Assembly: GCA_947653315.1 (NCBI GenBank)
Contig: CANTGP010000082.1
Location: 1-10,402, forward strand
Reading direction: 5' to 3'
Length of the DNA stretch: 10,402 nucleotides
From: an uncultured Lachnospiraceae bacterium
Lineage (GTDB): Bacteria > Bacillota > Clostridia > Lachnospirales > Lachnospiraceae
Shown here piece by piece: positions 1-10,402 of the stretch (positions within the stretch are counted from its first letter, which is position 1; every line of letters starts with the position of its first letter). The position numbers were made by a program, and so were the translations under genes. The notes below the pieces were generated by a model. That model was given only the letters and a program-made list of their open reading frames with translations, did no database searches and was not told the origin of the DNA.

Positions 1-2
1 GC

Positions 3-776
3 TGGACCGGATTTTTCTGGCGGATGATGATCTGCCGTCTGCTGGAATGGGAAATACCTACGTGGCTTGTTACCAATGTGAACCGGGAGAACATGGAATA
101 CCTTCCTTATATCCACGGATTGATAGAAGAAAAGGGTTGGAACCAATCGGAATATTTTTTGGGCTGCTGCGTCAGCAGGATTAAGAACCGGTTTGAAAGG
201 GATGATTCCTGCCTGCCGGAACATGAATTTTTGGACCTCGTCGCCGAAATGAAAATGTCGGGAAAGCTGGAATTAAAATATTTTAATTTTGAAGACATGC
301 GGATACTGAAAAACATTATGGCATTGTTTCATCCGGAAGCGGCGGGAACGGAAGCGGGGGGTCTTAGGAATTACTGTATCTACGGATGCGGAAACCGGAT
401 TAACCAGTATACCTTTTCGGCGGACGGATATATTTATCCCTGCGCGGCATCGGCAGGAAACCTAAAGTATGCCATCGGGCAGTTTAGGTTAAAAGAAGAA
501 ATCTGCCTGGCGGAAGAACCGGGAGAATGCTGGACAAAGAAGACGGTTTTGGAAAAAAACCGGTGCAGGCAATGCAAAACGGCGTTTGTATGCGGGGGCG
601 GATGCCCTTTGGAATCCAGGGAAAAAAATAAGTTTTGGGACATTCCCTTTTGTCCGGAAGCGGAGAAAATCGTACATTCCTATTTTCGCTGCCTGGAAAG
701 GGGGATTCCGGTCCTGAACAGGGAAACGGTTTATGAAAGCGGGGGAAATGCGTGTATATTACCAAATACTTTATAA
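3..776 (+). CDS. Radical SAM/SPASM protein, C-terminal part (5' end outside window)
   Basis: The reading frame is open to the left edge, and the visible part is the end of a radical SAM/SPASM enzyme. Numbered from the ATG at 24, it has the SPASM cysteine pattern for auxiliary 4Fe-4S clusters: C122, G135-x4-C140, C181-x2-C184-x5-C190-x3-C194 and C210. The core CxxxCxxC motif would lie upstream of the window. The protein aligns along its length with the next two genes (for example RLLEWEIP here against RLLEMEIP in the third), so the three are tandem paralogues. The ATG at 24 has no spaced ribosome binding site and falls inside the conserved domain, so it is not the native start. The first 22 bases fit the paralogues better in frame 2 (LDRIFLA against FDRTVNA) than in frame 3, which suggests a frameshift; see findings. 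The stop lies inside the next gene (25-base overlap), which implies translational coupling. The substrate is unknown; the family usually modifies peptides. Confidence 0.8.
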   Translation, partial: WTGFFWRMMICRLLEWEIPTWLVTNVNRENMEYLPYIHGLIEEKGWNQSEYFLGCCVSRIKNRFERDDSCLPEHEFLDLVAEMKMSGKLELKYFNFEDMRILKNIMALFHPEAAGTEAGGLRNYCIYGCGNRINQYTFSADGYIYPCAASAGNLKYAIGQFRLKEEICLAEEPGECWTKKTVLEKNRCRQCKTAFVCGGGCPLESREKNKFWDIPFCPEAEKIVHSYFRCLERGIPVLNRETVYESGGNACILPNTL

Positions 777-2140
777 CACACAGGCTGCCTTCGGGCAGGA
801 ATATACTGGTCAATACATTGACCGGCTCGGTGGATTTTGTGCCGCCCCATGTCGCGAAGCAGATGGAGGAAGGCAAATTTACGGAAACGGACGGTTTGGA
901 AGAAATCATGCTGAGGGAAAAGGGCTACCTGTTTGATTCTCCCGAAGACGAAAGGAAGGTGATAAGTGATTTAAGACGGAAAGAGGAAGAAGAAAGCGGG
1001 CTAAACCCGTATGTATTCGTTTTCTGCCTCACTTATGCCTGCAATCTCAGGTGTTTTTACTGTTTTGAGGATAATTACCACCAAGAGGAATCGGTGTTAA
1101 GCGGGGAGGACTTGGATAAAATTATCGGCTTTATGGAGCGGACCATCGGGAAAGATTCCAACCGGTCGTTCCGTGTCGTCCTGGAAGGCGGGGAACCGTT
1201 TATGCCTCACCGGGAAGAAATCCTGGAAGATTTTTTCGGGAAAATGAACAGGCTGGCGGCAGGATACCGCGGGTTTCGCGGCGTAACGGTTTTTACGAAC
1301 GGTGAAAATACCCTGTCTTATCTCGATTTGATCAGGCGTTACGCCGGCATCATCGAAAGGATGCTGATTACTTTGGCGGGTCCGGCGAAAGTGCACAATT
1401 TATACCGGGTTTCGGTTTCCGGAAAGGGTAATTATGAAAAGGCGGTAACGGCGACGTCCGTTCTCCTCCAAAACGGAATCCGCGTCCATACGGTGCTGAA
1501 CCTGGATAAAAACAATATCCATTGCCTGCCCGAAATATCGAACGAGCTGCACCGGTGCGGATGGATGGAAAAGGAGAATTACCTGGGATGCTATGTCAGC
1601 AGTATTAAATACTTTGATTCCAAATATGCAGGGGATGCGTTGAGCGAATATGCCATTTGGAAGGCGGTTTTGGATTTTGACGGACGCGGGGAACCGGATG
1701 CGGGGCTGTTTCATTTGGGGGACATGAAGCACTTGAAAAGCGTGGACAGGCTGATACGGTGCAGGAGACCCCGCTTCCATAACTGTGCGGCGGCGGACGG
1801 AAAGCAATACCTGTTCGGTCCCGACGGCCTGATCTATAACTGCACGAAGGTTACGGCAAAAAAGGAATATTCCATCGGAGGATACCGTGGGGAAGCGGAG
1901 ACGGAATTGGAGGAAGAAAAAGTGAAGTGGTGGAAGACCGGAACCGGGCAGGGAAGCGGGTACTGTGACGATTGCAGGTATGCGTTTATCTGCGGGGGAA
2001 AATGCCGCTATGAAGAAGACAGGCTTGGTTTCCGGCCGGAGGTATGCCGGAGGGATATGGAAAACCTGTGCCGGCTGTATTTGGATCATCTGGAGGAGGG
2101 AAACTGTCCGGCACCGCGGGACATTATCTATGATAACTGA
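752..2140 (+). CDS. Radical SAM/SPASM peptide-maturase-like protein
   Basis: A complete 462-residue enzyme. An N-terminal module of about 90 residues opens with a pattern shared with the third paralogue (MYxT, then LPSG, LVN and LTG). The radical SAM core has C97-x3-C101-x2-C104 for the SAM-binding 4Fe-4S cluster and the GGEP motif at 146-149. The SPASM domain shows C345, G359-x4-C364, C405-x2-C408-x5-C414-x3-C418 and C432, enough ligands for two auxiliary clusters. SPASM enzymes of this layout typically make thioether, C-C or C-O crosslinks or otherwise modify ribosomal peptides; the substrate here cannot be named. The start is GTG at 752, chosen because translation from it reproduces the paralogue's N-terminus and because GGGGGA lies 5 bases upstream. 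It overlaps the preceding gene by 25 bases. The motif that is usually HD-x-x-R reads HNLYR, a minor departure. Confidence 0.88.
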   Translation: MYITKYFITHRLPSGRNILVNTLTGSVDFVPPHVAKQMEEGKFTETDGLEEIMLREKGYLFDSPEDERKVISDLRRKEEEESGLNPYVFVFCLTYACNLRCFYCFEDNYHQEESVLSGEDLDKIIGFMERTIGKDSNRSFRVVLEGGEPFMPHREEILEDFFGKMNRLAAGYRGFRGVTVFTNGENTLSYLDLIRRYAGIIERMLITLAGPAKVHNLYRVSVSGKGNYEKAVTATSVLLQNGIRVHTVLNLDKNNIHCLPEISNELHRCGWMEKENYLGCYVSSIKYFDSKYAGDALSEYAIWKAVLDFDGRGEPDAGLFHLGDMKHLKSVDRLIRCRRPRFHNCAAADGKQYLFGPDGLIYNCTKVTAKKEYSIGGYRGEAETELEEEKVKWWKTGTGQGSGYCDDCRYAFICGGKCRYEEDRLGFRPEVCRRDMENLCRLYLDHLEEGNCPAPRDIIYDN

Positions 2141-2146
2141 ATGAAT

Positions 2147-2178
2147 TGCCCGGCAGGAACCCCATTTCGCTGCGGGCA
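2147..2178 (+). promoter_or_regulatory. Intercistronic hairpin just before a ribosome binding site
   Basis: TGCCC at 2147-2151 and GCAG at 2153-2156 pair with CTGC at 2170-2173 and GGGCA at 2174-2178. This gives a 9-bp stem with one bulged G (2152) and a 13-base loop. It fills most of the 51-base gap between the second and third SPASM genes and ends 4 bases before the GGAGGGAG ribosome binding site. No U-run follows, so it is not an intrinsic terminator. It could be an mRNA processing or stability element, or a translation modulator; the structure is read from sequence and the role is inferred. Confidence 0.45.
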
Positions 2179-2191
2179 GAACGGAGGGAGC

Positions 2192-3595
2192 ATGTATTTA
2201 ACAAACTATTACTACGAAACGAAATTGCCGTCAGGGGAAATCATGTTAGTGAATTTTCTTACGGGCAAGGTGTTCCATATACAGGAACGGATCAGAAAAG
2301 CAATACGGAATTGGAAAACCACGGGTGATTTGTCCGCGTTGGATTTCCTGATTCACCATCAATTCTTATTTACGGACAGGGAGGAAGAACAAAAGCTGAT
2401 TGGGGAAAAAGCGGAACGGTATCAGGCAGGACTGAAAGAGAAGACGAAATTATACGGGCTGTGCCTTACCTATGACTGTAATCTGCGGTGCCCTTACTGC
2501 TATGAAAACGGAATCGGACGGCAGGGTACCCTGATGTCCGCGGAAATGATTGACAGGGCAATACGGGGAATCGGGGAGCTGAATGAAAAGCTCGAATCCA
2601 AAAGCTCCCTGCTGGTTTTGTTCGGCGGAGAGCCGTTTATGGAATGCAACCGGAAAGCGGTGGAGTACTTTTTTGATGCGGCGGAAAAGTTCTGTATACG
2701 GGAGAGGGAAAACGGCAGGAAATGCCGGATGGTCCTTTTTTCCAACGGTTATGAGCTGGCGGGTTTTCTGCCGCTGCTGGAACGTTATCGGAAGGATATC
2801 GACAGTATCATGCTTACCCTGAACGGGACAAAAGAGGTGCATGACAAATTAAAGAGACCGGTTGATGCGGGCAGCAGTTTTGACAGAACGGTAAACGCCA
2901 TAGAAAGGCTTTTGGAAATGGAGATTCCGGTCAATGTAAGATGTGATGTGGATAAGACCAATATCCGTTTCCTTTCCCATACGGCAGATTTTGTAATGGA
3001 AAGGGGATGGCAGGAAAACCCGCTGTTCCGCTACTATATATCGCCGATTAAGTGGAAGGACGACGGTACCTGCCTGTCGGAAGGGGAAATACTGAAATCT
3101 TTCCTGAAGTTGGACGGAATCCACGGAGGAAAACTTTCGGCCGTTTTTGAGCTGGGGGCGCTGCGCTTGGTACATAATATGGTCGGTATGCTGGACGGCA
3201 GCGGTGAAGGCTCGATGGCTTACTTTTACTGCGAAGCGGTAAAGCAGCAGCAATACGTGTTCGGGACGGACGGCTATATCTACAAATGTCTGTCAAGCAT
3301 CGGGAAACCGGAGCTTGCCTTTGGGGAATACGGAGACGGGGTAATCATGTACGGCGGCAGGGAAGAACGCTGGAGTGTAAGGAATGTGCTGAGCATTCCA
3401 AAATGCAGGGAATGCAGGTTTGCCTTTGTCTGCGGAGGCGGCTGCGCACTTGCGGCAGAGCAGGGGGGCGACCTGTACGAGCCGAAATGTGAAGACGTCA
3501 GGACGGTGGTTGACGGCTGCCTGTATGCGGCGGATAAGGGAAAAAACATTATCAGCTACGGTTTTTACTACGACGAAAATGCAGGGGAGCACTAG
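2192..3595 (+). CDS. Radical SAM/SPASM peptide-maturase-like protein
   Basis: A 467-residue paralogue of the preceding gene. The core motif is C96-x3-C100-x2-C103 (CNLRCPYC), followed by GGEP at 145-148. The SPASM ligands are C347, G361-x4-C366, C405-x2-C408-x5-C414-x3-C418 and C433. The C405-C418 block has the same residue numbers as in the second gene, so little insertion or deletion separates the two. The in-frame ATG at 2141, directly after the upstream stop, would add 17 residues. The ATG at 2192 is preferred because it has a strong GGAGGGAG site (2183-2190) and gives the N-terminus shared with the neighbour (MYLTN against MYITK). The function is probably peptide modification. Three divergent copies in a row suggest successive reactions, or related substrates, rather than simple redundancy; that is inference. 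Confidence 0.88.
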   Translation: MYLTNYYYETKLPSGEIMLVNFLTGKVFHIQERIRKAIRNWKTTGDLSALDFLIHHQFLFTDREEEQKLIGEKAERYQAGLKEKTKLYGLCLTYDCNLRCPYCYENGIGRQGTLMSAEMIDRAIRGIGELNEKLESKSSLLVLFGGEPFMECNRKAVEYFFDAAEKFCIRERENGRKCRMVLFSNGYELAGFLPLLERYRKDIDSIMLTLNGTKEVHDKLKRPVDAGSSFDRTVNAIERLLEMEIPVNVRCDVDKTNIRFLSHTADFVMERGWQENPLFRYYISPIKWKDDGTCLSEGEILKSFLKLDGIHGGKLSAVFELGALRLVHNMVGMLDGSGEGSMAYFYCEAVKQQQYVFGTDGYIYKCLSSIGKPELAFGEYGDGVIMYGGREERWSVRNVLSIPKCRECRFAFVCGGGCALAAEQGGDLYEPKCEDVRTVVDGCLYAADKGKNIISYGFYYDENAGEH

Positions 3596-3629
3596 ACGTC
3601 ATGCGTGAAGGCGGGAAGCAGAAAGAAGC

Positions 3630-3676
3630 GGAAACAGAAAAGCAAAAAAATATAAAAACTATGGAAACGGAAAAGG
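3630..3676 (+). repeat. Imperfect direct repeat in a purine-rich leader
   Basis: GGAAACAGAAAAG at 3630-3642 recurs as GGAAACGGAAAAG at 3663-3675, 33 bases downstream, in the purine-rich spacer before the U32 gene. The spacer is in frame with that gene but would encode only a Lys/Glu-rich stretch, so it is read as untranslated leader. No function can be assigned. Confidence 0.4.
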
Positions 3677-3687
3677 AGAAAAATCAT

Positions 3688-5118
3688 ATGGAAATGACAG
3701 TAGGAACAAAGTGGGAAGAAGGATATGTAAGGAAACTGGCGCAAATGGGAGTCAATATGGTCTATGGGTCGCTGCGGGAGAGTGCCATCGGAAACGCACG
3801 GGCTTCCGCCGTCCTGCCGGAGGTCAGTAAGGAAGAAGCAGTCAAACATGTGGAGCTGGTACATTCTTTGGGCATGAGATTTGGTTATACGCTGAATTCC
3901 CCCTGCCTTGGCAATATGGAATTTACCGCCAAAGGACAGAACCGGATACTGGAAGAACTGGACTTTATCTATCATGAATTAAAGGCGGACCAGGTCATCA
4001 TTACCGTTCCTTCCCTTATGGAAATCGTCAGGAAACGGTTTCCTGATTGGGAAATAAAGGCATCCATTGTCAATCAGATCAGTACGGTGGAATCGGTTAG
4101 GAGTTTTATTGAACTGGGAGCCGACGTCATCGTCATTGACAATAACAATAACCGGAAGTTTAAGGTCATTGAGGCAATCCGGAGTTTCACGGACAAAAAG
4201 CTGGAAGTGCTTGCCAACGACAGTTGCCTGTTGGACTGCCCTTATAAAAACTACCATTATAATATATCCGCCCATTCGAGCAGGGACGACGATCCGCTGG
4301 ATAAATGGTTTGTGGATTACTGTGTCATGAAATGCATGAAGGAAAAATGTACGAATCCCGAATTGATTATCAAATCCAGTTTTATCCGTCCCGAAGATGT
4401 GGGCATCTATGAGGATTTGGGCATCGACGTGTTAAAAATCAATACCAGGCACATGCCTGCGGATTGGGGACTGAGGGCGGTGAAAGCCTATGCGGACCGT
4501 TCTTATGACGGCAATCTTTTGGATATCATATGTCCGGTTGCCATGACGTTTCCGGAAGAAAGCCTGTCAAAAATGGAGGGGTGGAAAGAGGAATCCTGGG
4601 CACAGTTTATATACAGCATGAATTTCCCGACGCCGGAAATGTATTTGGACAACCGGAAACTGGACGGATTTTTGGAGCATTACAGGAAAGAAGGGCATGA
4701 CTGCGATTCCATGTGCGGTATTAGCTGCAATTACTGTAAGGAACTGGCGGATAAGACAGTAACCCCGGACCCTGACCGTCAGAGATATGAAAACTATGTG
4801 AACTTCATGGAAGAAGGCATTGACAATATTATCCAATGTTCCCTGGCGGATGAAAATACGGCGGTACAGGGTACGAAATGGGATGAAGCGATAAGAAGCG
4901 AGTATGAAGACCTGCTGACCATCGTGCCGTGGATGTTCCGTAGCATTGCCCAAAAGAAGACGACGGCCAAGGCGGAACAGTTCGCCGCTGCCAGAAAATC
5001 CGCCGTGGTGGAAGCGGAGGATATGGTAAAGGCCGTGTACAGTGAAACGCCAAACGGAAGTATGAAAAAGCTGATGGCTAAACTGGAAAAGTACCGCCAT
5101 ACTTCCCTGGTGGAATAG
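3688..5118 (+). CDS. Peptidase U32 family protein, likely iron-sulfur enzyme
   Basis: A 476-residue protein with the N-terminal TIM-barrel pattern of peptidase family U32. A VYGSLRES segment near residue 25 is followed by an early GYTLNS strand and a LGADVIVID strand near 143-151. The family's central Cys segment begins LEVLANDSC (ends at C180), with further cysteines at C184, C212, C216 and C221. Family members UbiU, UbiV, TrhP and RlhA are associated with oxygen-independent hydroxylation, and UbiU/UbiV bind a 4Fe-4S cluster through four cysteines; others are annotated as proteases. A second cluster, C339-x3-C343-x3-C347-x2-C350, sits in the C-terminal half and could hold another Fe-S centre. 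The start is ATG 3688, with AGGAG 9 bases upstream. The in-frame ATGs at 3601 and 3661 would add a Lys/Glu-rich extension and have poorer binding sites. Hydroxylation of the pathway substrate is plausible; proteolysis cannot be excluded. Confidence 0.8.
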   Translation: MEMTVGTKWEEGYVRKLAQMGVNMVYGSLRESAIGNARASAVLPEVSKEEAVKHVELVHSLGMRFGYTLNSPCLGNMEFTAKGQNRILEELDFIYHELKADQVIITVPSLMEIVRKRFPDWEIKASIVNQISTVESVRSFIELGADVIVIDNNNNRKFKVIEAIRSFTDKKLEVLANDSCLLDCPYKNYHYNISAHSSRDDDPLDKWFVDYCVMKCMKEKCTNPELIIKSSFIRPEDVGIYEDLGIDVLKINTRHMPADWGLRAVKAYADRSYDGNLLDIICPVAMTFPEESLSKMEGWKEESWAQFIYSMNFPTPEMYLDNRKLDGFLEHYRKEGHDCDSMCGISCNYCKELADKTVTPDPDRQRYENYVNFMEEGIDNIIQCSLADENTAVQGTKWDEAIRSEYEDLLTIVPWMFRSIAQKKTTAKAEQFAAARKSAVVEAEDMVKAVYSETPNGSMKKLMAKLEKYRHTSLVE

Positions 5119-5121
5119 AAT

Positions 5122-5136
5122 GCCTGTCTGACAGGC
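5122..5136 (+). other. Short hairpin after the U32 gene
   Basis: GCCTGT (5122-5127) pairs with ACAGGC (5131-5136) around a CTG loop, 3 bases after the U32 stop codon. It is followed by an A-run rather than T-run on the plus strand, so it is not a forward intrinsic terminator. It may protect the 3' end of a processed transcript. Confidence 0.35.
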
Positions 5137-5182
5137 AAAAAGGAATAAAGGCAAAAGGAATAAAGGTGAAAAGGAAAGGAGG
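5134..5182 (+). repeat. Purine-rich imperfect tandem repeat leading into a ribosome binding site
   Basis: A unit of 16 bases (GGCAAAAAGGAATAAA, 5134-5149) is followed by a 15-base copy (GGCAAAAGGAATAAA, 5150-5164) differing only by one A. A degenerate third copy (5165-5182) ends in the AAGGAGG ribosome binding site of the next gene. The pattern suggests slippage-driven duplication. Each unit contains an AAGGA core that could act as a standby ribosome site; that role is inferred. Confidence 0.6.
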
Positions 5183-5186
5183 ACAT

Positions 5187-6722
5187 ATGGATATTTTATT
5201 ATTGAACCCGCCCATCAGTGCAAAACTTGCTTCCCCGAAAGTAAAGGGACCGTTCAGCGACGTCGGGGAGAACCTGGGTCTGTGTTACATCGCTTCTTCC
5301 GTCCGGGAGCGGGGATACACGGCGGAAATCTTTGACGCATACTTAACGGAAATGGAAGCGGACAGGGTGGTGGAGGAAATCCTGCTGCGGAATCCCAACA
5401 TGCTGGCGGTTTCCATTCCTTCCGTTATGGCGTTAAAAAATGCTTCCGCCATTACCGCGAAAATCCGGGAGGCAAACAAAGGAATTTCCATTGTGGTAGG
5501 CGGGCATTACGCCACTATTTGTCATGAAACGGTTCTGCGGAGTACAAAGGCGGATGCACTCATACTTTCCGAAGGGGAAAGGACTATGGTCAATCTGTAT
5601 GAAACGCTGTCAGAAGGCGGGTCCCTGGAAAATGTGGCGGGAATTGTTTATGAGGAAAACGGTACGGTAAAGAGGAATCCCGGAGAGGGTCTGATTGACG
5701 ATTTGGATTCCCTTCCGTTTCCGTCCAGGGAGCTTTTGCCCGCCGTACTCGAAAAGGGAGGATTCGCTTCCGTCCTGACAAGCCGGGGTTGTTACGGGAA
5801 ATGTACGTTTTGTTCTTCGGCAGACTTTCTTGGCAAGTCCCATAGGGGAAAATACTGGCGGCCGAGAAGCAGCGGCAATGTGGTGGATGAAATAGAACTT
5901 CTCAACAGGGAATACGGCGTGGGGAATCTGGTCATGATTGACGATTCTTTCATAGGCAGTCTGAAGGCGGGAGGAGAAAGGGCGGTCAATATCGCGGAGG
6001 AAATCATAAGACGGGGACTAAAGCTGCATTATCTGATTATGTGCAAACCGGAAGAAGTGGACCGGGTAATCTTTGCGGCGCTGAAGAAATCCGGCCTTGC
6101 GGCCGTATCCATCGGAATAGAATCCGGCGCCCAAAGCGGTCTTGACAGAATGAACAGGAATTGTACCGTCGGTATGTGCAGGGAGGCGCTTTCCGTTCTC
6201 AGGGAGCTGGATTTGGAAGTCTTTATAGGGCTGATTCCGTTTGACCCGGATACTACGGCGGAGGAACTGGAGGAAACGATAGATTTCCTGTATTCCATGG
6301 GGGAACTGAATGTCTCCCTGTTCCGGAAAAGGATGATGTGTCTGCCGGGTTCGGGAATCGAACGCAGTATGTCGGAGCAGAACCGTTTGGAGAATGGAAA
6401 GTATACGATTTCGGACAGGATTACCGAGCAGGTCTGCAGAATTATGGAGACGGCAGGCAAGAGCTGGGGAAACCAATTGAACTGTTATCTTTACAATTCT
6501 TTGTGGCGGATAGCGATATCGGACGGGACGGAAGAAAAATGCGGGGAGATACGCAGGCAGGCAAGGGAGGCGGTAAATGAAAAAAGCAGGGATATCCTGA
6601 AAGGGGTCATCGAATCCGTCAGGGAAGGCAGGGAAGAAAGCGTTATTTCGGAACAGGCGGAACGGGAAACGGAAAGTCTGTACCGGGAAGTTTCCGGGCT
6701 GCTGGAACGGATTGCATATTAG
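5187..6722 (+). CDS. B12-binding-domain radical SAM protein
   Basis: A 511-residue protein with an N-terminal cobalamin-binding (Rossmann-like) domain followed by a radical SAM core. The N-terminus reads MDILLLNPP, typical of this class. An EIFDAY segment lies near 47-52 and VVGGHYA at 103-109 matches the usual VxGGxH turn. The core motif is C202-x3-C206-x2-C209 (RGCYGKCTFC), and an IGIESG segment at 309-314 is typical. There is no DxHxxG motif, as expected for this class, which binds cobalamin without His ligation. Family members methylate unactivated carbon or phosphorus centres or catalyse ring rearrangements; the substrate here is unknown. ATG 5187 is chosen because AAGGAGG (5176-5182) lies 4 bases upstream and the protein then begins with the conserved strand. 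A GTG at 5166 would add 7 residues. The gene follows the U32 gene by 68 bases and its stop codon overlaps the next ribosome binding site. Confidence 0.87.
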   Translation: MDILLLNPPISAKLASPKVKGPFSDVGENLGLCYIASSVRERGYTAEIFDAYLTEMEADRVVEEILLRNPNMLAVSIPSVMALKNASAITAKIREANKGISIVVGGHYATICHETVLRSTKADALILSEGERTMVNLYETLSEGGSLENVAGIVYEENGTVKRNPGEGLIDDLDSLPFPSRELLPAVLEKGGFASVLTSRGCYGKCTFCSSADFLGKSHRGKYWRPRSSGNVVDEIELLNREYGVGNLVMIDDSFIGSLKAGGERAVNIAEEIIRRGLKLHYLIMCKPEEVDRVIFAALKKSGLAAVSIGIESGAQSGLDRMNRNCTVGMCREALSVLRELDLEVFIGLIPFDPDTTAEELEETIDFLYSMGELNVSLFRKRMMCLPGSGIERSMSEQNRLENGKYTISDRITEQVCRIMETAGKSWGNQLNCYLYNSLWRIAISDGTEEKCGEIRRQAREAVNEKSRDILKGVIESVREGREESVISEQAERETESLYREVSGLLERIAY

Positions 6723-6736
6723 GAGGAAAAAGATAC

Positions 6737-7705
6737 ATGGATATGGTAAAAATGGTTGATGTAGAAATAGACAGGAAATTGGATTTACTGAAAGCATATC
6801 CCAATCTGTATTCCATGGCGGATTATCATTTGAAAAAAAGAGGAAGCCGGCTTATCGTAAAGATAGCCGGCGACATCTGCGATGCGCTTGGGGCGGATGC
6901 CGGTGCGATGGCGCAGGCTGTGGCATGGATTGAACTGTTCCATAATTTCACCTTGATTCATGATGATATTATTGACCGGGACGGGATAAGGAGGGGACAG
7001 GAAGCCGTATGGAAGAAGTGGGGAGCCAATCAGGCCATACTTGCTGGGGATGCCCTTTTGGCCCTGGCTGCGTTGGGACAGGATTGTTTTAGGGGCTGTA
7101 TTTTGGAGCGGGAGCTGCGGGCATATATCCTGACAGTCATGGAAGGGGAATATTGGGATATTCTTTTTGAAGAAAGAACCGATGTGAGGATAGAGGAATG
7201 CATGGAAATGTTAAGCATGAAGTCTGCGGAAACCATAGCTTTTCTCTTAAGGACGATAGGCATCCTGTCAGGACTGGCCACAACGGAGGTCCAGAAACTT
7301 GCCTGTCTGGGGGACCGGATCGGTCTGTCCCTGCAGATAAGGAACGATGTGGGAAATATATTGGAAGCATACCGGGGCGGCGATTCCGGCGATATCCGCC
7401 AAAAGAAAAAAACGCTGCCCGTTCTTTATGCGTTGAAAAATACCAACAGGGATACGGTGACGGATGCTTGGAAGGAATATACGGAAAGTACCGGGGGCGA
7501 TGTGAGGAAAGCCGCGGAATGGATTGTCAGGAACCATGGGATTACGTGTGCGGTGGAAATGGCGGACAAATACAGGGAGGAAGCCATGAGCATGGCAGGG
7601 GGAATGGCGGAAACGGTGATTCCGAATCTTAACAAAGCCATTCTTACCGAGAAAATCCGTAATGATTTTTATTTATGCAGTGGGGTTGTTGACTTTGTGT
7701 CATGA
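6737..7705 (+). CDS. Divergent polyprenyl synthetase / ComQ-like prenyltransferase
   Basis: A 322-residue all-alpha isoprenyl diphosphate synthase-fold protein. The first Asp-rich motif is intact (HDDIID, D76, D77 and D80, then R85-R86-G87), as are AGDALLA (103-109) and a KKKTLP segment (223-228). Two canonical elements are altered. The second Asp-rich motif, normally DDxxD, reads NDVGN (203-207). The GGKRxRP motif that binds IPP reads RGSRLIV (35-41), with Ser in place of Lys. Normal family members elongate allylic diphosphates with IPP. ComQ, a divergent relative, transfers a prenyl group to a Trp of the ComX peptide. Loss of the IPP-site lysine beside radical SAM peptide-maturase genes makes a non-IPP acceptor plausible, but this is inference. 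A weak or inactive chain-elongating enzyme, or a cyclase, is possible. The start ATG is 10 bases after AGGAGG (6721-6726), which overlaps the preceding stop. Confidence 0.82.
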   Translation: MDMVKMVDVEIDRKLDLLKAYPNLYSMADYHLKKRGSRLIVKIAGDICDALGADAGAMAQAVAWIELFHNFTLIHDDIIDRDGIRRGQEAVWKKWGANQAILAGDALLALAALGQDCFRGCILERELRAYILTVMEGEYWDILFEERTDVRIEECMEMLSMKSAETIAFLLRTIGILSGLATTEVQKLACLGDRIGLSLQIRNDVGNILEAYRGGDSGDIRQKKKTLPVLYALKNTNRDTVTDAWKEYTESTGGDVRKAAEWIVRNHGITCAVEMADKYREEAMSMAGGMAETVIPNLNKAILTEKIRNDFYLCSGVVDFVS

Positions 7706-7740
7706 ATCCGGGCGGGACCGGGAAACCGGCTGCGGAGCGG

Positions 7741-7769
7741 TTGACGCGGCGGCCTATTTCTCCTATACT
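7741..7769 (+). promoter_or_regulatory. Sigma-A type promoter
   Basis: TTGACG (7741-7746) and TATACT (7764-7769) are separated by exactly 17 bases; each hexamer matches the sigma-A/sigma-70 consensus at five of six positions. Transcription should begin near 7776. That lies after the ATG at 7772, so translation of this transcript must use the ATG at 7802. The promoter lies in the 96-base gap after the prenyltransferase gene and would give the next gene independent expression. Confidence 0.65.
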
Positions 7770-7801
7770 GTATGTTACCGGGAAAGGCAGGTTATGTTTA
7801 T

Positions 7802-8974
7802 ATGAGGAAAGAAGAAGATTGCAGCAGTTTGTTATACCGGATCAGGCCATCGGGCCCCATGTTTAAATTTTACCCCCATCGGGCGACCCTGAATTATTAT
7901 ATTGGCTGTTCCCACAACTGCCAATACTGCTATGCGCGTTATACCATGAAAAATGTCGGGTGGGAGCCGAATGATTTCGGAAAAAATATCTGCATTAAGG
8001 CGAATGCGGCGGAAATACTGAAGAAAGAGCTGGAGAAAAAGACCTGGAAGCAGACCTATAACGGCATTATCCATCTCGGTACGGTCCAGGATCCTTTTCA
8101 GCCGGTGGAAAGGCAGTACCATATGACGGACAAGGTGTTAAACCTGTTGTATGAGCACAGGAAGCCCGTGACGATCCTGACCAAATCGGCATATGTGCTG
8201 GAGTCATTGGAAGTATTGAAAAAGATGGCGGCGGAAAAGCTCGTCCATGTGGATTTTTCGGTTGCTTATACGGACGAGGAACTCAGGCAGAATTTGGAAC
8301 CCGGAGCATCCACGTTCGGGGAAAGGTTTCACGCGATGAAGACGCTTCATGACAACGGCATATCGGTGGGAATTTTTTTAAACCCCGTAATTCCGTATTA
8401 TACGGACAGAAGTTTAGAGGATATCTTTTCCAAAGGGAGGGATTGCGGGATTGCCTATGTCATGTTGGGATTTATACACTTAAACAGGAGCAATTATGCG
8501 GACTTAAAGAGGTGTCTGTCGGAAAGGAAGCCCGGTGTGGACTTTGATTCTTATTTTAATCTGAAGGGAAGGAGCATTGGCATCCGGGAAGATGAAGGCA
8601 TGGAGGTTGCAAAGCATTGTTACGGGCTCTCCAAAAAGTATGGGGTGCCCCTCATAACATCCCGGTATCACCAATATCTGACCGGGGAATATGATTTCGG
8701 GGTATTCCGTTACCGTTATCCCCTTGTCTTCGATTATGTAAAGATGATGAAACAGAATGCGGACCGGAAGGTTTCTTTTGCCCAGGCGGCGGAAACGGCA
8801 GACCGGTTCTGCCATGATAACAGTTATTTGACATCCCTGAAATGGTATTGGGAAAATGAAAAATTGTTTTCCGATTTCGGTCATTTGGATATCGAGGCAT
8901 CGGTGGAAAACGGGGAAAAATATTATACGCTCCATTCCGGGCCGGAAAGCATGGATACCGGATGGAGCGGATAA
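7802..8974 (+). CDS. SPL-family (COG1533-like) radical SAM protein
   Basis: A 390-residue radical SAM protein of the spore photoproduct lyase superfamily. The signature is IGCSHNCQYCYAR with C36-x3-C40-x2-C43, followed by TVQDPFQPVE (94-103), matching the family's DPYQPxE region. It ends without a SPASM or other large auxiliary domain. Members include true spore photoproduct lyase and many uncharacterised relatives; the sequence does not show DNA-repair specificity, so the reaction is left open. The start at 7802 is preferred over ATG 7772 because the predicted transcription start falls between them and AGGCAGG (7785-7791) lies 10 bases upstream of 7802. Its own promoter suggests it is not strictly part of the upstream operon, though read-through is likely because no terminator is seen between them. 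It could still serve the pathway as a sixth radical enzyme type. Confidence 0.83.
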   Translation: MRKEEDCSSLLYRIRPSGPMFKFYPHRATLNYYIGCSHNCQYCYARYTMKNVGWEPNDFGKNICIKANAAEILKKELEKKTWKQTYNGIIHLGTVQDPFQPVERQYHMTDKVLNLLYEHRKPVTILTKSAYVLESLEVLKKMAAEKLVHVDFSVAYTDEELRQNLEPGASTFGERFHAMKTLHDNGISVGIFLNPVIPYYTDRSLEDIFSKGRDCGIAYVMLGFIHLNRSNYADLKRCLSERKPGVDFDSYFNLKGRSIGIREDEGMEVAKHCYGLSKKYGVPLITSRYHQYLTGEYDFGVFRYRYPLVFDYVKMMKQNADRKVSFAQAAETADRFCHDNSYLTSLKWYWENEKLFSDFGHLDIEASVENGEKYYTLHSGPESMDTGWSG

Positions 8975-8976
8975 TG

Positions 8977-9004
8977 GAAATGAGAAATGAGAAATGCAAA
9001 ATGA
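8977..9004 (+). repeat. Heptanucleotide tandem repeat
   Basis: Four consecutive 7-base units begin at 8977: GAAATGA, GAAATGA, GAAATGC and AAAATGA. They are followed by decayed GAAACG units to about 9016. The array lies between two convergent genes, just after the SPL-family stop. Such arrays can vary in copy number by slippage. No coding or binding function is evident. Confidence 0.65.
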
Positions 9005-9011
9005 GAAACGT

Positions 9012-9030
9012 GAAACGCCGTCGGTGTTTC
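9012..9030. terminator. Possible terminator hairpin between convergent genes
   Basis: GAAACGCC (9012-9019) pairs with GGTGTTTC (9023-9030) around a 3-base loop: 8 bp with one G-U in the plus-strand RNA and one A-C mismatch in the minus-strand RNA. On the minus strand the hairpin is followed by a T-rich stretch (the heptad repeat read in reverse), giving a weak terminator for the DUF2461 unit. There is no T-run on the plus side. Confidence 0.4.
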
Positions 9031-9033
9031 CGG

Positions 9034-9714
9034 CTACCTGACCGGCATTTTGAAATCAACCAAAGCACGGTTTAAGAAGTCATTAAAGGGCTTCATAAGA
9101 AGGAACCGTTCTTTTGCAACAGTGATAAAATGCTGTGTATCCAGGAACTCGCCGGGGGAAATGTGATTTTCGATGAACCAGCTTTTATGTTTCAGGAATT
9201 CCCCGTAAGGCGTATCGCTTTCGTAGCCGCGGGGGATATTTTTCAGTTTTTCGCCCATGAGGGTGTAGTATTTGGAAAAATCCCCGTCCTTCAATATTTG
9301 CTCCAACTCGCCGCCGTGTTTTACGATATGGTCCCTTACCATGCCGGTGGCATCGGAAAATTGTGAAGCGAATAATCCGCCGCCCAGAAAGATGTCTTCG
9401 GGTGTGACATTGATGAAATAGCCGACAGGAACGGGAACCCGTCCGCCGGAAGATATATGGGCGCGGAAAGAAGGATTATAGGGGGATTTGTCATGACTGA
9501 AACGTGTGTCGCGGTTCAGCCGGAAAATTAAATCGCGGGAATTTAAGTACCGTATGGACGGGTCGTCTTCGGAAAGCCGGACAATCAATTCCTGTACCAA
9601 ATCGGCAAATTCGTTGTAGGCGTCTTTATAGGCGGTTTTGTTTTGGTTCATCCACTCTTTGGTATTATTCTTACTCAGGTCCGTTAAAAAATCCAGGATT
9701 GTTTTTGTGTTCAT
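9034..9714 (-). CDS. DUF2461 (TIGR02453-type) domain protein
   Basis: A 226-residue soluble protein that matches the DUF2461 family along its whole length. It has an N-terminal FLTDLSKNNTKEW segment (9-21) and the hallmark RLNRDTRFSHDKSPY at 65-79. A glycine-rich IFLGGGLF turn lies at 108-115 and a Lys-rich LKHKSW segment in the C-terminal third. The molecular function of the family is unknown; it is widespread and usually cytosolic. The start ATG (9712-9714) has AAGGAG 7 bases upstream on the minus strand. The gene begins 18 bases after the sigma factor gene ends, so the two are likely co-transcribed. The signature is clear and little doubt remains about the family. Confidence 0.92.
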   Translation of the reverse strand: MNTKTILDFLTDLSKNNTKEWMNQNKTAYKDAYNEFADLVQELIVRLSEDDPSIRYLNSRDLIFRLNRDTRFSHDKSPYNPSFRAHISSGGRVPVPVGYFINVTPEDIFLGGGLFASQFSDATGMVRDHIVKHGGELEQILKDGDFSKYYTLMGEKLKNIPRGYESDTPYGEFLKHKSWFIENHISPGEFLDTQHFITVAKERFLLMKPFNDFLNRALVDFKMPVR

Positions 9715-9732
9715 GTAAATTCTCCTTATTCT

Positions 9733-10402
9733 TTATTGTTGGATTGTTTCAAATAAATCGGTTTCCAGCAGGTTGGAAATAAAATTCCGGGCTGCCGTTG
9801 CGGAACGGTAAAGCGGCATATGGTTAAAAACCATTGCGATATCGTCAATTTGTTCCATGGCGCAGGTATAATCCAAAATAGCGCTGTCTTCACGGCATTC
9901 CAAAGACGAATATTCCAAATTCTGCGGATGGAGACGGTGGGTGGAAATGGCATAGTTAATCCTTTTCCTGCAGTTGCAGACGCCGCCGCCGAGTCCGCAG
10001 TATTCGCTCAGGAAACCGGCCATTTTTTTCCGTGTCCTTGAAAGCCTTTGGCGGTATGTATCGGGGGAGAGGTTTAAGATTTCCCCTGCGATGCGGCTGT
10101 CCAGTTTAAACATGGTGCCCAAAATGAAAATACACCGGCTGGCAGGATCGAGACATTGCAGCATGACATTCGTACAGGACATTTTCAGCTCATCGGAAAG
10201 AAGATTGCTGTCTATGTTCTGTGTCATATCCGGGATATCGCCGGTATTTCCGTTTAAAATATCTTCGCTGTAATATTCAAAACTTAACGGGCGGTTCGCA
10301 AACATGGATTTTTTGTAATTTTTTAAATGATTCACCGCAATTTTGAAGACCCAGGTGGAGAAAGCGCATTCCTTACGGAAAGAAGCAAGGTTCGTCATTA
10401 CG
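9733..10402 (-). CDS. ECF-type RNA polymerase sigma factor with Cys-containing C-terminal extension, 5' partial
   Basis: The frame is open through the right edge, so the true start lies outside the window; residues are numbered from the Met at 10398. The visible N-terminal part is sigma region 2.3-2.4 (NLASFRKECAFSTWVFKIAV), which melts and recognises the -10 element. A helix-turn-helix region 4 spans about 83-126, ending SPDTYRQRLSRTRKKM, and would bind the -35 element. Beyond it is an extension of about 90 residues with a YCGLGGGVCNCRKRI segment (C134, C141, C143), followed by a region with no recognised motif. Similar CxC extensions occur in some ECF-like sigma factors and may bind metal or sense redox state, but that role is inference. 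No anti-sigma gene is visible; the next gene is DUF2461. Confidence 0.82.
   Translation of the reverse strand, partial: VMTNLASFRKECAFSTWVFKIAVNHLKNYKKSMFANRPLSFEYYSEDILNGNTGDIPDMTQNIDSNLLSDELKMSCTNVMLQCLDPASRCIFILGTMFKLDSRIAGEILNLSPDTYRQRLSRTRKKMAGFLSEYCGLGGGVCNCRKRINYAISTHRLHPQNLEYSSLECREDSAILDYTCAMEQIDDIAMVFNHMPLYRSATAARNFISNLLETDLFETIQQ

What the first reader, a model, noticed from the sequence alone, without database searches (positions are those of the whole stretch)
1..7705. Possible undescribed anaerobic pathway combining SPASM maturases, a U32 enzyme, a B12-radical SAM enzyme and a prenyltransferase
Seen: six consecutive same-strand genes with overlaps or spacers of at most about 90 bases, encoding three SPASM radical SAM paralogues, a Cys-rich U32 protein, a cobalamin-domain radical SAM protein and a prenyl-synthase-fold protein. 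Known: SPASM enzymes modify peptides, U32 relatives support oxygen-independent hydroxylation, B12-radical SAM enzymes methylate inert carbons, and ComQ prenylates a peptide. Inference: the product may be a heavily modified, possibly prenylated peptide, or alternatively a modified isoprenoid. I do not recognise this gene combination as a named system. No precursor gene is visible in the window.
Basis: partly seen in the sequence, partly recalled or inferred. Interest (0 to 1): 0.8.

Follow-up and report, generated by a model that had tools for sequence, protein, structure and literature searches.

The report
Oxygen-free terpenoid-making gene cluster
The six genes look like the downstream end of a larger operon in an anaerobic bacterium related to Kineothrix that probably builds a terpenoid and decorates it with iron-sulphur radical enzymes instead of oxygen-dependent ones.

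Summary
Six same-strand genes lie at 1-7705: three SPASM radical SAM proteins (the first cut by the contig start), a U32 protein, a B12-binding radical SAM protein and a polyprenyl synthase. A PA0069-like radical SAM gene (7772-8974) probably belongs too.

The missing left side decides the interpretation. Contig C30 of the same genome ends inside the gene the window cuts: 64 of 67 overlapping bases match and the joined frame is intact (490 aa). C30 carries polyprenyl synthase, UbiA, DXS, squalene-hopene-type cyclase, UbiA, a second cyclase, two more SPASM proteins and an ABC exporter. Together: about 22.5 kb, one direction, no gap over 77 bases, no recognisable precursor peptide. This is a terpenoid cluster rather than a RiPP.

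Best explanation: a cyclised terpenoid is functionalised without O2 by five SPASM enzymes, a U32 hydroxylase and a B12-radical SAM enzyme. U32 relatives sit beside cyclases in Kineothrix alysoides and Mobilisporobacter, between two UbiA genes in a Chloroflexi genome, and in deltaproteobacteria/Myxococcota beside oxidosqualene cyclases and a chorismate mutase-DAHP synthase, a plausible source of prephenate, the proposed oxygen donor.

Reactions are inferred. Ten searches of a partial paper library listed no description of this combination.

The parts
1..776 (+). C-terminal part of SPASM protein 3; its N-terminal part is at the end of contig C30 (12952-13745)
   Evidence: TIGR04085 48.4 bits; 64 of 67 bases identical between window 31-97 and the end of C30; joined frame 490 aa without stops, colinear with paralogues; pieces cover profile positions 1-259 and 238-466. 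Window bases 1-30 do not match C30.
752..2140 (+). SPASM radical SAM protein 4 (462 aa)
   Evidence: Radical_SAM 2.6e-9, SPASM TIGR04085 43.8 bits; CX3CX2C at residue 97 and CX2CX5CX3C at 405
2141..3595 (+). SPASM radical SAM protein 5 (484 aa; start perhaps at 2192)
   Evidence: Radical_SAM 9.9e-13, SPASM 43.4 bits; CX3CX2C at residue 113 and CX2CX5CX3C at 422
3601..5118 (+). U32 protein (505 aa), probable Fe-S hydroxylase
   Evidence: Peptidase_U32 3.9e-8; eight cysteines conserved in 79-82 of 82 sequences (three of them lie in the patterns used to find the relatives); model pLDDT 83.1, best PDB match U32 structure 5d88
5166..6722 (+). B12-binding radical SAM protein (518 aa)
   Evidence: B12-binding 1.4e-14 and Radical_SAM 3.1e-16; CX3CX2C at residue 209, no DXHXXG found; nearest solved structure OxsB 5ul2, 6.6e-19
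6737..7705 (+). polyprenyl synthase 2 (322 aa)
   Evidence: polyprenyl_synt 8e-40; first Asp motif DDIID intact, second is NDVGN
7772..8974 (+). PA0069-like radical SAM protein (400 aa), probable last gene of the operon
   Evidence: NF033668 188 bits, below its cut-off of 360; 66 bases after the synthase; same neighbourhood in L074 and L076

Best explanation
The genes are the 3' part of a terpenoid (perhaps meroterpenoid) biosynthetic operon in an anaerobe close to Kineothrix. Proposed steps: DXS raises the isoprenoid supply; two polyprenyl synthases make the chains; UbiA prenyltransferases load a chain on an acceptor; two squalene-hopene-type class II cyclases (DXDD) fold it into rings; the hydrocarbon is then functionalised without O2, the five diverged SPASM radical SAM enzymes abstracting hydrogens to oxidise, desaturate or cross-link, the U32 protein hydroxylating, the B12-radical SAM enzyme methylating or rearranging; the ABC-2 exporter moves the product. 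Shown: gene content, families, motifs, colinearity, relatives. Inferred: substrate, order and every reaction. Odds by step: C30 and window are one locus 0.93; terpenoid product 0.88; SPASM proteins act on that terpenoid 0.6; U32 hydroxylates it 0.55.
For: C30 alone already links terpenoid and SPASM genes on one contig: polyprenyl synthase, UbiA, DXS (639 bits, cut-off 466), cyclase, UbiA, cyclase, SPASM, SPASM, ABC permease, ABC ATPase, SPASM start, all on + with gaps of at most 77 bases. Link to the window. Cyclases carry DCDD and DHDD; SHC1 matches squalene-hopene cyclase 1gsz at 1.4e-74. No squalene/phytoene synthase (PF00494) in the own genome nor in K. alysoides and G158, so squalene is an unlikely substrate. 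A U32 of the same clade stands with polyprenyl synthase, UbiA, cyclase and B12-radical SAM genes in L074 and L076; UbiA-U32-UbiA in L033, one of the two nearest rows to the window's U32. Precedent for a SPASM enzyme on isoprenoid chains: Gms (PMC11186832, abstract and passages). Precedent for U32 hydroxylation: PMC11574389 and PMC6747719 (passages).
Against: No chemistry is shown. The best-scoring named relatives of the SPASM proteins are peptide maturases, and the closest solved structure by sequence is 5wgg, which I recall as a peptide maturase. Terpenoid cyclases are near the U32 clade in only 5 of 80 loci; NRPS-like, type III PKS and other B12-radical SAM contexts are commoner. The C30 join has three mismatches and 30 unmatched bases at the window tip. 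The five SPASM proteins are not shown to be one clade. The full set was seen in one genome only.
Confidence: 0.7

Rival explanations
1. Hybrid terpenoid-peptide product: the SPASM proteins mature a RiPP whose precursor is encoded upstream of C30 or elsewhere, and the terpenoid is attached to it.
For: Nearest named models of the SPASM proteins are RiPP maturases such as CefB, geopeptide and PapB families. The operon's left end is not seen; the first 600 bases of C30 match no other contig.
Against: No precursor-like ORF in the gaps of C30 or the window; no PqqD-type domain hit in the Pfam scans of these proteins; maturase models 120-126 bits at best against cut-offs of 300 and more. Precursors encoded far away were not searched for.
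Confidence: 0.13
2. The product is a structural membrane terpenoid lipid, hopanoid-like or tetraether-like, rather than an exported natural product; the enzymes are the same, the role differs.
For: SHC-type cyclases; best B12-radical SAM model is TIGR04072, lipid biosynthesis (127.7 bits, cut-off 360); a Tes-like tetraether-synthase relative in the Mobilisporobacter cluster (267.5 bits, cut-off 450).
Against: Rare: SHC1 relatives in 2 of 397 family genomes, 2 of 16 genus genomes and 2 of 392 order genomes, each time counting the window's own genome, unlike a core lipid; a DrrA/NodJ-like ABC pair inside the operon; no squalene synthase.
Confidence: 0.15
3. C30 and the window are not neighbours: the overlap is a repeated or recombined SPASM segment, and the window's six genes belong to some other pathway.
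For: Three mismatches in the 67-base overlap; window bases 1-30 unmatched; draft genome of 508 contigs.
Against: The overlap lies at the two contig ends, in frame, with no missing residues; among the SPASM genes compared, the next best match of that piece is 82% over 38 bases; no other half-gene among the 8 of 12 candidates scored in this genome.
Confidence: 0.06

Closest known systems
Terpenoid cluster of Kineothrix alysoides KNHs209 (L076) and Mobilisporobacter senegalensis (L074), found here
   Same: Polyprenyl synthase, PA0069-like radical SAM, U32 of the same clade, B12-radical SAM, UbiA, SHC-type cyclase, ABC ATPase on one strand
   Different: No SPASM array and no DXS seen; cyclase in a 1177-aa protein with a permease-like C-terminal part (by eye); extra UbiU-like U32 in K. 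alysoides; Tes-like radical SAM in L074; methyltransferases; U32 on another branch
Squalene-hopene (hopanoid) pathway
   Same: SHC-type class II cyclases with DXDD
   Different: No squalene synthase family in the genome; two UbiA and five SPASM genes in the operon; cyclase scores below the hopene-cyclase cut-off (306 and 200 bits, cut-off 431)
U32 hydroxylases UbiU/UbiV, TrhP, RlhA
   Same: U32 domain, conserved cysteines, TIM-barrel-type fold
   Different: Different cysteine spacing and an extra C-terminal CX3CX3CX2C; UbiU and TrhP models hit only at 2.4e-3 and 1.2e-3
Archaeal radical SAM lipid enzymes Gms and Tes
   Same: Radical SAM chemistry on isoprenoid chains in anaerobes; Gms has a SPASM domain (PMC11186832, passages)
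   Different: Act on archaeal tetraethers; no cyclase or U32 partner known to me; no direct sequence comparison with Gms was made
RiPP SPASM maturase systems (CefB, geopeptide, PapB families)
   Same: Best named models for the SPASM proteins
   Different: No precursor gene seen; scores far below cut-offs; terpenoid genes in the same operon

Membership tests
Terpenoid biosynthetic gene cluster | Prenyl diphosphate synthase and terpene cyclase genes together | tested here: met
   polyprenyl_synt twice, SQHop_cyclase_C twice (293.9 and 207.9 bits, cut-off 26.1); the link of the window to C30 rests
Terpenoid biosynthetic gene cluster | Dedicated precursor supply | tested here: met
   DXS in the operon, 639 bits, cut-off 466
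Terpenoid biosynthetic gene cluster | Terpenoid product | not testable with these tools
   Needs chemistry
Hopanoid pathway | Squalene synthase | tested here: not met
   PF00494 0 of 1 in the own genome, 81% complete; control positive in 7 of 14
Hopanoid pathway | Hopene cyclase model over its cut-off | tested here: not met
   305.8 and 199.6 bits against 431.1
RiPP with SPASM maturase | Precursor peptide gene nearby | tested here: not met
   Six ORFs of 20 aa or more lie mostly outside genes in both contigs, none precursor-like by eye; the region left of C30 is unseen
RiPP with SPASM maturase | A named maturase model over its cut-off | tested here: not met
   Best 126 bits against 600 (CefB); the only SPASM model over cut-off is the general domain TIGR04085 (best 25 models shown per protein)
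SPASM radical SAM proteins | CX3CX2C and C-terminal SPASM cysteines | tested here: met
   Motifs in SPASM1, 2, 4, 5 and, split over the two contigs, 3; TIGR04085 43-48 bits, cut-off 27
U32 Fe-S hydroxylases | U32 domain with four conserved cysteines | tested here: met
   C102, C209, C213, C245 in 82 of 82; spacing differs from CX6CX15CX3C
U32 Fe-S hydroxylases | Prephenate-dependent O2-free hydroxylation | tested here: inconclusive
   Chorismate mutase-DAHP synthase near the U32 in 5 of 80 loci, not in C30 or the window; no activity test
B12-radical SAM methyltransferases | B12-binding domain and CX3CX2C | tested here: met
   54.4 bits, cut-off 32.1; CX3CX2C at 209
B12-radical SAM methyltransferases | Methyl transfer | not testable with these tools
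   No specific model over cut-off; nearest solved structure OxsB
ComQ-type peptide prenylation | Peptide gene beside the synthase-fold protein | tested here: not met
   Gaps of 14 and 66 bases on either side of 6737-7705

The most novel reading that the evidence does not exclude
A new class of terpenoid pathway in which SPASM radical SAM enzymes and a U32 clade stand in for cytochrome P450s: C-H functionalisation of a cyclised terpenoid with no O2, by hydrogen abstraction and by hydroxyl transfer from prephenate. The same U32 clade, with oxidosqualene cyclase, squalene synthesis and a chorismate mutase-DAHP synthase in deltaproteobacteria/Myxococcota, would give an O2-independent route to oxidosqualene and sterol-type lipids.
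Probability: 0.35. Interest if true: 0.92.

Novelty: new variant of a known kind. Interest (0 to 1): 0.74.

Why it matters
Tailoring of terpenoids is mostly known from O2-using enzymes (recalled). An anaerobe with two cyclases, two UbiA proteins and seven or eight radical or Fe-S enzymes in one operon would show how hydrocarbon skeletons are oxidised without O2, and would give a testable function to a widespread U32 clade. The related oxidosqualene-cyclase loci touch an older question, whether steroid-type lipids can form without O2, on which geological biomarkers rest: PMC4919349 says that none of the bacteria with an Osc homologue in that study is an anaerobe and that an alternate pathway in an anaerobe may be discovered (passages).

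Tried and rejected
Prenylated peptide (ComQ-like): no peptide gene. Hopanoid operon: no squalene synthase family in the genome. Known SPASM system: named maturase models are far below cut-off. U32 as UbiU or TrhP itself: barely detectable (for comparison).

Left of C30: its first 600 bases match nothing else in the genome. The 46-aa fragment that opens C30 (2-142) reminds me of the end of isopentenyl-diphosphate isomerase (recalled); the only support is two NCBIfam hits at E 0.048, one an isomerase and one a Nudix hydrolase; no Pfam hit and no PDB hit better than 0.98. Not used.

SPASM5 structure: mean pLDDT 46.8 from three sequences, not used. SPASM tree: 15 rows; of 14 hits outside the window's genome, ORFs from nine loci passed a motif filter and five loci (L114, L122, L123, L125, L129) gave none; L103 gave none. 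The nine are split off at 100/99; one clade of the five is neither shown nor rejected (p-AU 0.127), because a long-branch Omnitrophota row (L062) falls among them.

Distribution: SHC1 relatives at E <= 1e-10 were the window genome plus G158 (2 of 397; again 2 of 392, with overlap) and plus G014 (2 of 16). No class- or phylum-wide search for the cyclase was run.

Third-position G+C is alike on both contigs but also in the two flanking genes, so it says little about the join. Contig C110, fetched for a 46-base match, held only an ABC ATPase relative.

Literature: ten searches, several with capped listings; no preprints and few subscription papers are held. Passages of four papers were seen; none was read whole.
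Full report
Observation. The window is contig C82 (10402 bases) of a draft genome of 3241638 bases in 508 contigs, 81.29% complete. The six genes exist as described, and a PA0069-like radical SAM gene follows on the same strand. To the right lie a DUF2461 gene and a sigma-factor-like gene on the other strand.

The organism. Relative G014 is given as 'same genus'; its contig C3 has 437148 bases, as has NZ_JPNB01000003.1 of Kineothrix alysoides KNHs209, and the U32 lies at the matching place. So the window's genome is Kineothrix-like, Lachnospiraceae. By the same reasoning G158 is Mobilisporobacter senegalensis. These are inferences. That the organism is a strict anaerobe is recalled from the family, not tested.

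The missing half. A search of the own genome found 64 of 67 identical bases between the very end of contig C30 (13679-13745 of 13745) and window 31-97. Joined there, the SPASM gene is one frame of 490 aa without stops, colinear with its four paralogues. In a profile search the two pieces cover model positions 1-259 and 238-466, and no other half-gene showed among the 8 of 12 candidates scored in this genome. Against this stand three mismatches and the 30 bases at the tip of the window, which do not match C30. A strain mixture in the assembly would explain both; I could not test that.

What C30 carries, all on +: polyprenyl synthase 161-1138, UbiA 1201-2139, DXS 2121-3869, SHC-type cyclase 3918-5693 (DCDD), UbiA 5690-6652, second cyclase 6696-8414 (DHDD; a longer frame starts at 6618), SPASM 8439-9878, SPASM 9907-11322, ABC-2 permease 11361-12113, ABC ATPase 12128-12874, and the SPASM N-terminal part from 12952. 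From C30:161 to window 8974 this is about 22.5 kb, and the largest gap inside it is 77 bases. Six ORFs of 20 aa or more lie mostly outside genes: the open fragment at the C30 start (45 aa), a 60-aa antisense ORF there, two of 22 and 25 aa that run into gene starts, a 32-aa Lys/Arg-rich one before SPASM3, and a 37-aa one at 8962-9075 of the window. None looks like a RiPP precursor to my eye.

Cyclases and substrate. SHC1 matches squalene-hopene cyclase 1gsz at 1.4e-74. The squalene/phytoene synthase family PF00494 is absent from the own genome (0 of 1; control positive in 7 of 14) and from K. alysoides and G158 (0 of 2). The substrate is therefore more likely a polyprenyl diphosphate or a UbiA product than squalene; a missing 19% of the draft leaves room for error in the own genome, less so in the two near-complete relatives. 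PPS2 has a weakened second Asp motif, NDVGN.

SPASM proteins. CX3CX2C and CX2CX5CX3C are present. The five are 29-37% identical to each other. In a 15-row tree nine Lachnospirales outsiders are separated at 100/99; monophyly of the five is neither shown nor rejected (p-AU 0.127). In-place diversification is my inference. A SPASM enzyme on isoprenoid chains has a precedent in Gms (PMC11186832, abstract and passages). Against: their best named models are peptide maturases.

U32. In the window's sequence and 81 relatives of at least 340 aa from the 80 loci, C102, C209, C213 and C245 are kept in 82 of 82, C368 in 80, C372 in 79 of 81 that have the column, C376 in 81 and C379 in 82. The relatives were found with two patterns that contain C102 or C209 and C213, so the conservation of those three is partly built in; the other five were not in the patterns. 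Two Fe-S sites are plausible, where UbiU and UbiV bind one cluster each (PMC6747719, passages). The model (pLDDT 83.1) matches the U32 structure 5d88 best (E 3e-12). The last 125 residues are a less well predicted helical extension with a marginal DUF2621 hit (27.8 bits, cut-off 27.7).

Context of the U32 clade. Among the 80 loci (3 to 21 kb, many cut by contig ends; 88 stretches were confirmed and the best 80 kept): adenylating-enzyme family in 26, B12-radical SAM family in 22, chalcone-synthase-like type III PKS in 20, DAHP synthase in 6, SHC/oxidosqualene cyclase family in 5 (one member each named; NRPS character by eye). So this is a clade with specialised-metabolism neighbours, and terpenoid context is a minority. 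The nearest rows to the window's U32 by path are two copies in a lake Chloroflexi genome; one of these, L033, reads UbiA-U32-UbiA. The K. alysoides/Mobilisporobacter U32 is in the same 24-row group but on a separate branch, and the delta/Myxo cyclase-linked U32s are elsewhere, so recruitment to cyclase clusters may have happened more than once. The tree is a quick one and the window's branch is long (1.29).

Relatives of the cluster. K. alysoides (L076) and Mobilisporobacter (L074) share polyprenyl synthase (two ORFs in K. alysoides, one of 329 aa in Mobilisporobacter), a PA0069-like radical SAM protein, U32, two B12-radical-SAM-like genes, a third radical SAM protein, UbiA, a 1177-aa cyclase protein and an ABC ATPase. 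In L074 the third radical SAM protein scores best on tetraether synthase Tes (1.9e-79, below cut-off), and a methyltransferase is present; both have a Glycos_transf_3 protein. K. alysoides also has a U32 protein that hits UbiU at 1.1e-30.

Oxidosqualene-cyclase lead. In L083, L067 and L100 the U32 stands with a chorismate mutase-DAHP synthase and a cyclase that scores best on 2,3-oxidosqualene cyclase TIGR03463 (711-739 bits, cut-off 851), with the motif DCTAE in L083 and L100 and DCTGE in L067 (that DCTAE marks oxidosqualene cyclases is recalled). L083 also has HMG-CoA reductase, mevalonate kinase, diphosphomevalonate decarboxylase, FPP synthase, HpnC, HpnD and HpnE, and a geranylgeranyl-reductase-like flavoprotein beside the cyclase that could itself be an oxidase. 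The squalene epoxidase family PF08491 was found in 2 of 5 such genomes (those of L075 and L092), not in those of L083, L100 and L067 (completeness unknown; the family also rings in E. coli and Caulobacter). In 377 genomes of one phylum, 14 had this U32 at E <= 1e-90. I fetched 13 stretches, two of them from the genomes of L083 and L075 again. Of the 11 new ones (10 genomes; three stretches under 5 kb), 3 have the cyclase (L152, L153 in part, L155), 5 have squalene or mevalonate genes, and 7 have a relative of the DAHP synthase fusion next to the U32, its mutase domain not rechecked. These new genomes were not searched for an epoxidase.

How it works, in my judgement: isoprenoid supply, chain synthesis, prenyl transfer, class II cyclisation, then O2-free functionalisation and export. 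That U32 enzymes take the hydroxyl group from prephenate is a proposal in the literature, with direct evidence still lacking (PMC11574389, passages). Families and linkage are shown here; substrates and reactions are inferred.

Novelty. The searches listed no paper with this combination. I rate it a new variant of a known kind, because terpenoid clusters and radical SAM lipid enzymes are both known, while a SPASM-rich terpenoid operon with a U32 protein is not known to me.

Noticed in passing
L083 1412-18428; L100 19-4681; L067 1-4243; L152, L153, L155: A U32 of the same clade stands with oxidosqualene-type cyclase, squalene and mevalonate genes and a chorismate mutase-DAHP synthase in deltaproteobacteria/Myxococcota; no squalene epoxidase family hit in the genomes of L083, L100, L067. 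Possible O2-independent squalene oxidation.
   Followed up: partly
L074 12596-13819: A relative of archaeal tetraether synthase Tes (1.9e-79, below cut-off) inside a bacterial terpenoid cluster.
   Followed up: no
L074 16042-19575; L076 16052-19585: SHC-type cyclase with DNDD in a 1177-aa protein whose C-terminal part looks like an ABC permease and whose start looks like a signal peptide (by eye), followed by an ABC ATPase.
   Followed up: no
L033 833-4195: UbiA-U32-UbiA in a lake Chloroflexi genome, the U32 being one of the two nearest to the window's.
   Followed up: no
L047, L058, L069, L070 and other loci: U32 of this clade with type III PKS, UbiE-like methyltransferase, YceI and MMPL genes: perhaps an O2-free alkylresorcinol or quinone route.
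   Followed up: no
L064, L066, L081, L082, L087, L088, L095, L096, L099, L103, L110: U32 of this clade beside large adenylating (NRPS-like) genes in Clostridia.
   Followed up: no
window 4741-5115: The U32 has a C-terminal extension of about 125 residues that the relatives lack wholly or mostly, with a marginal DUF2621 hit.
   Followed up: partly
window 1-30: The first 30 bases do not match C30 although 31-97 do; contig-tip artefact or strain variant, unexplained.
   Followed up: partly
L023 5531-9993: The K. alysoides cluster is flanked by genes that look conjugation-related by eye, so it may be mobile.
   Followed up: no
L005 2-142: C30 opens with the end of a gene that resembles isopentenyl-diphosphate isomerase weakly (E 0.048).
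   Followed up: partly
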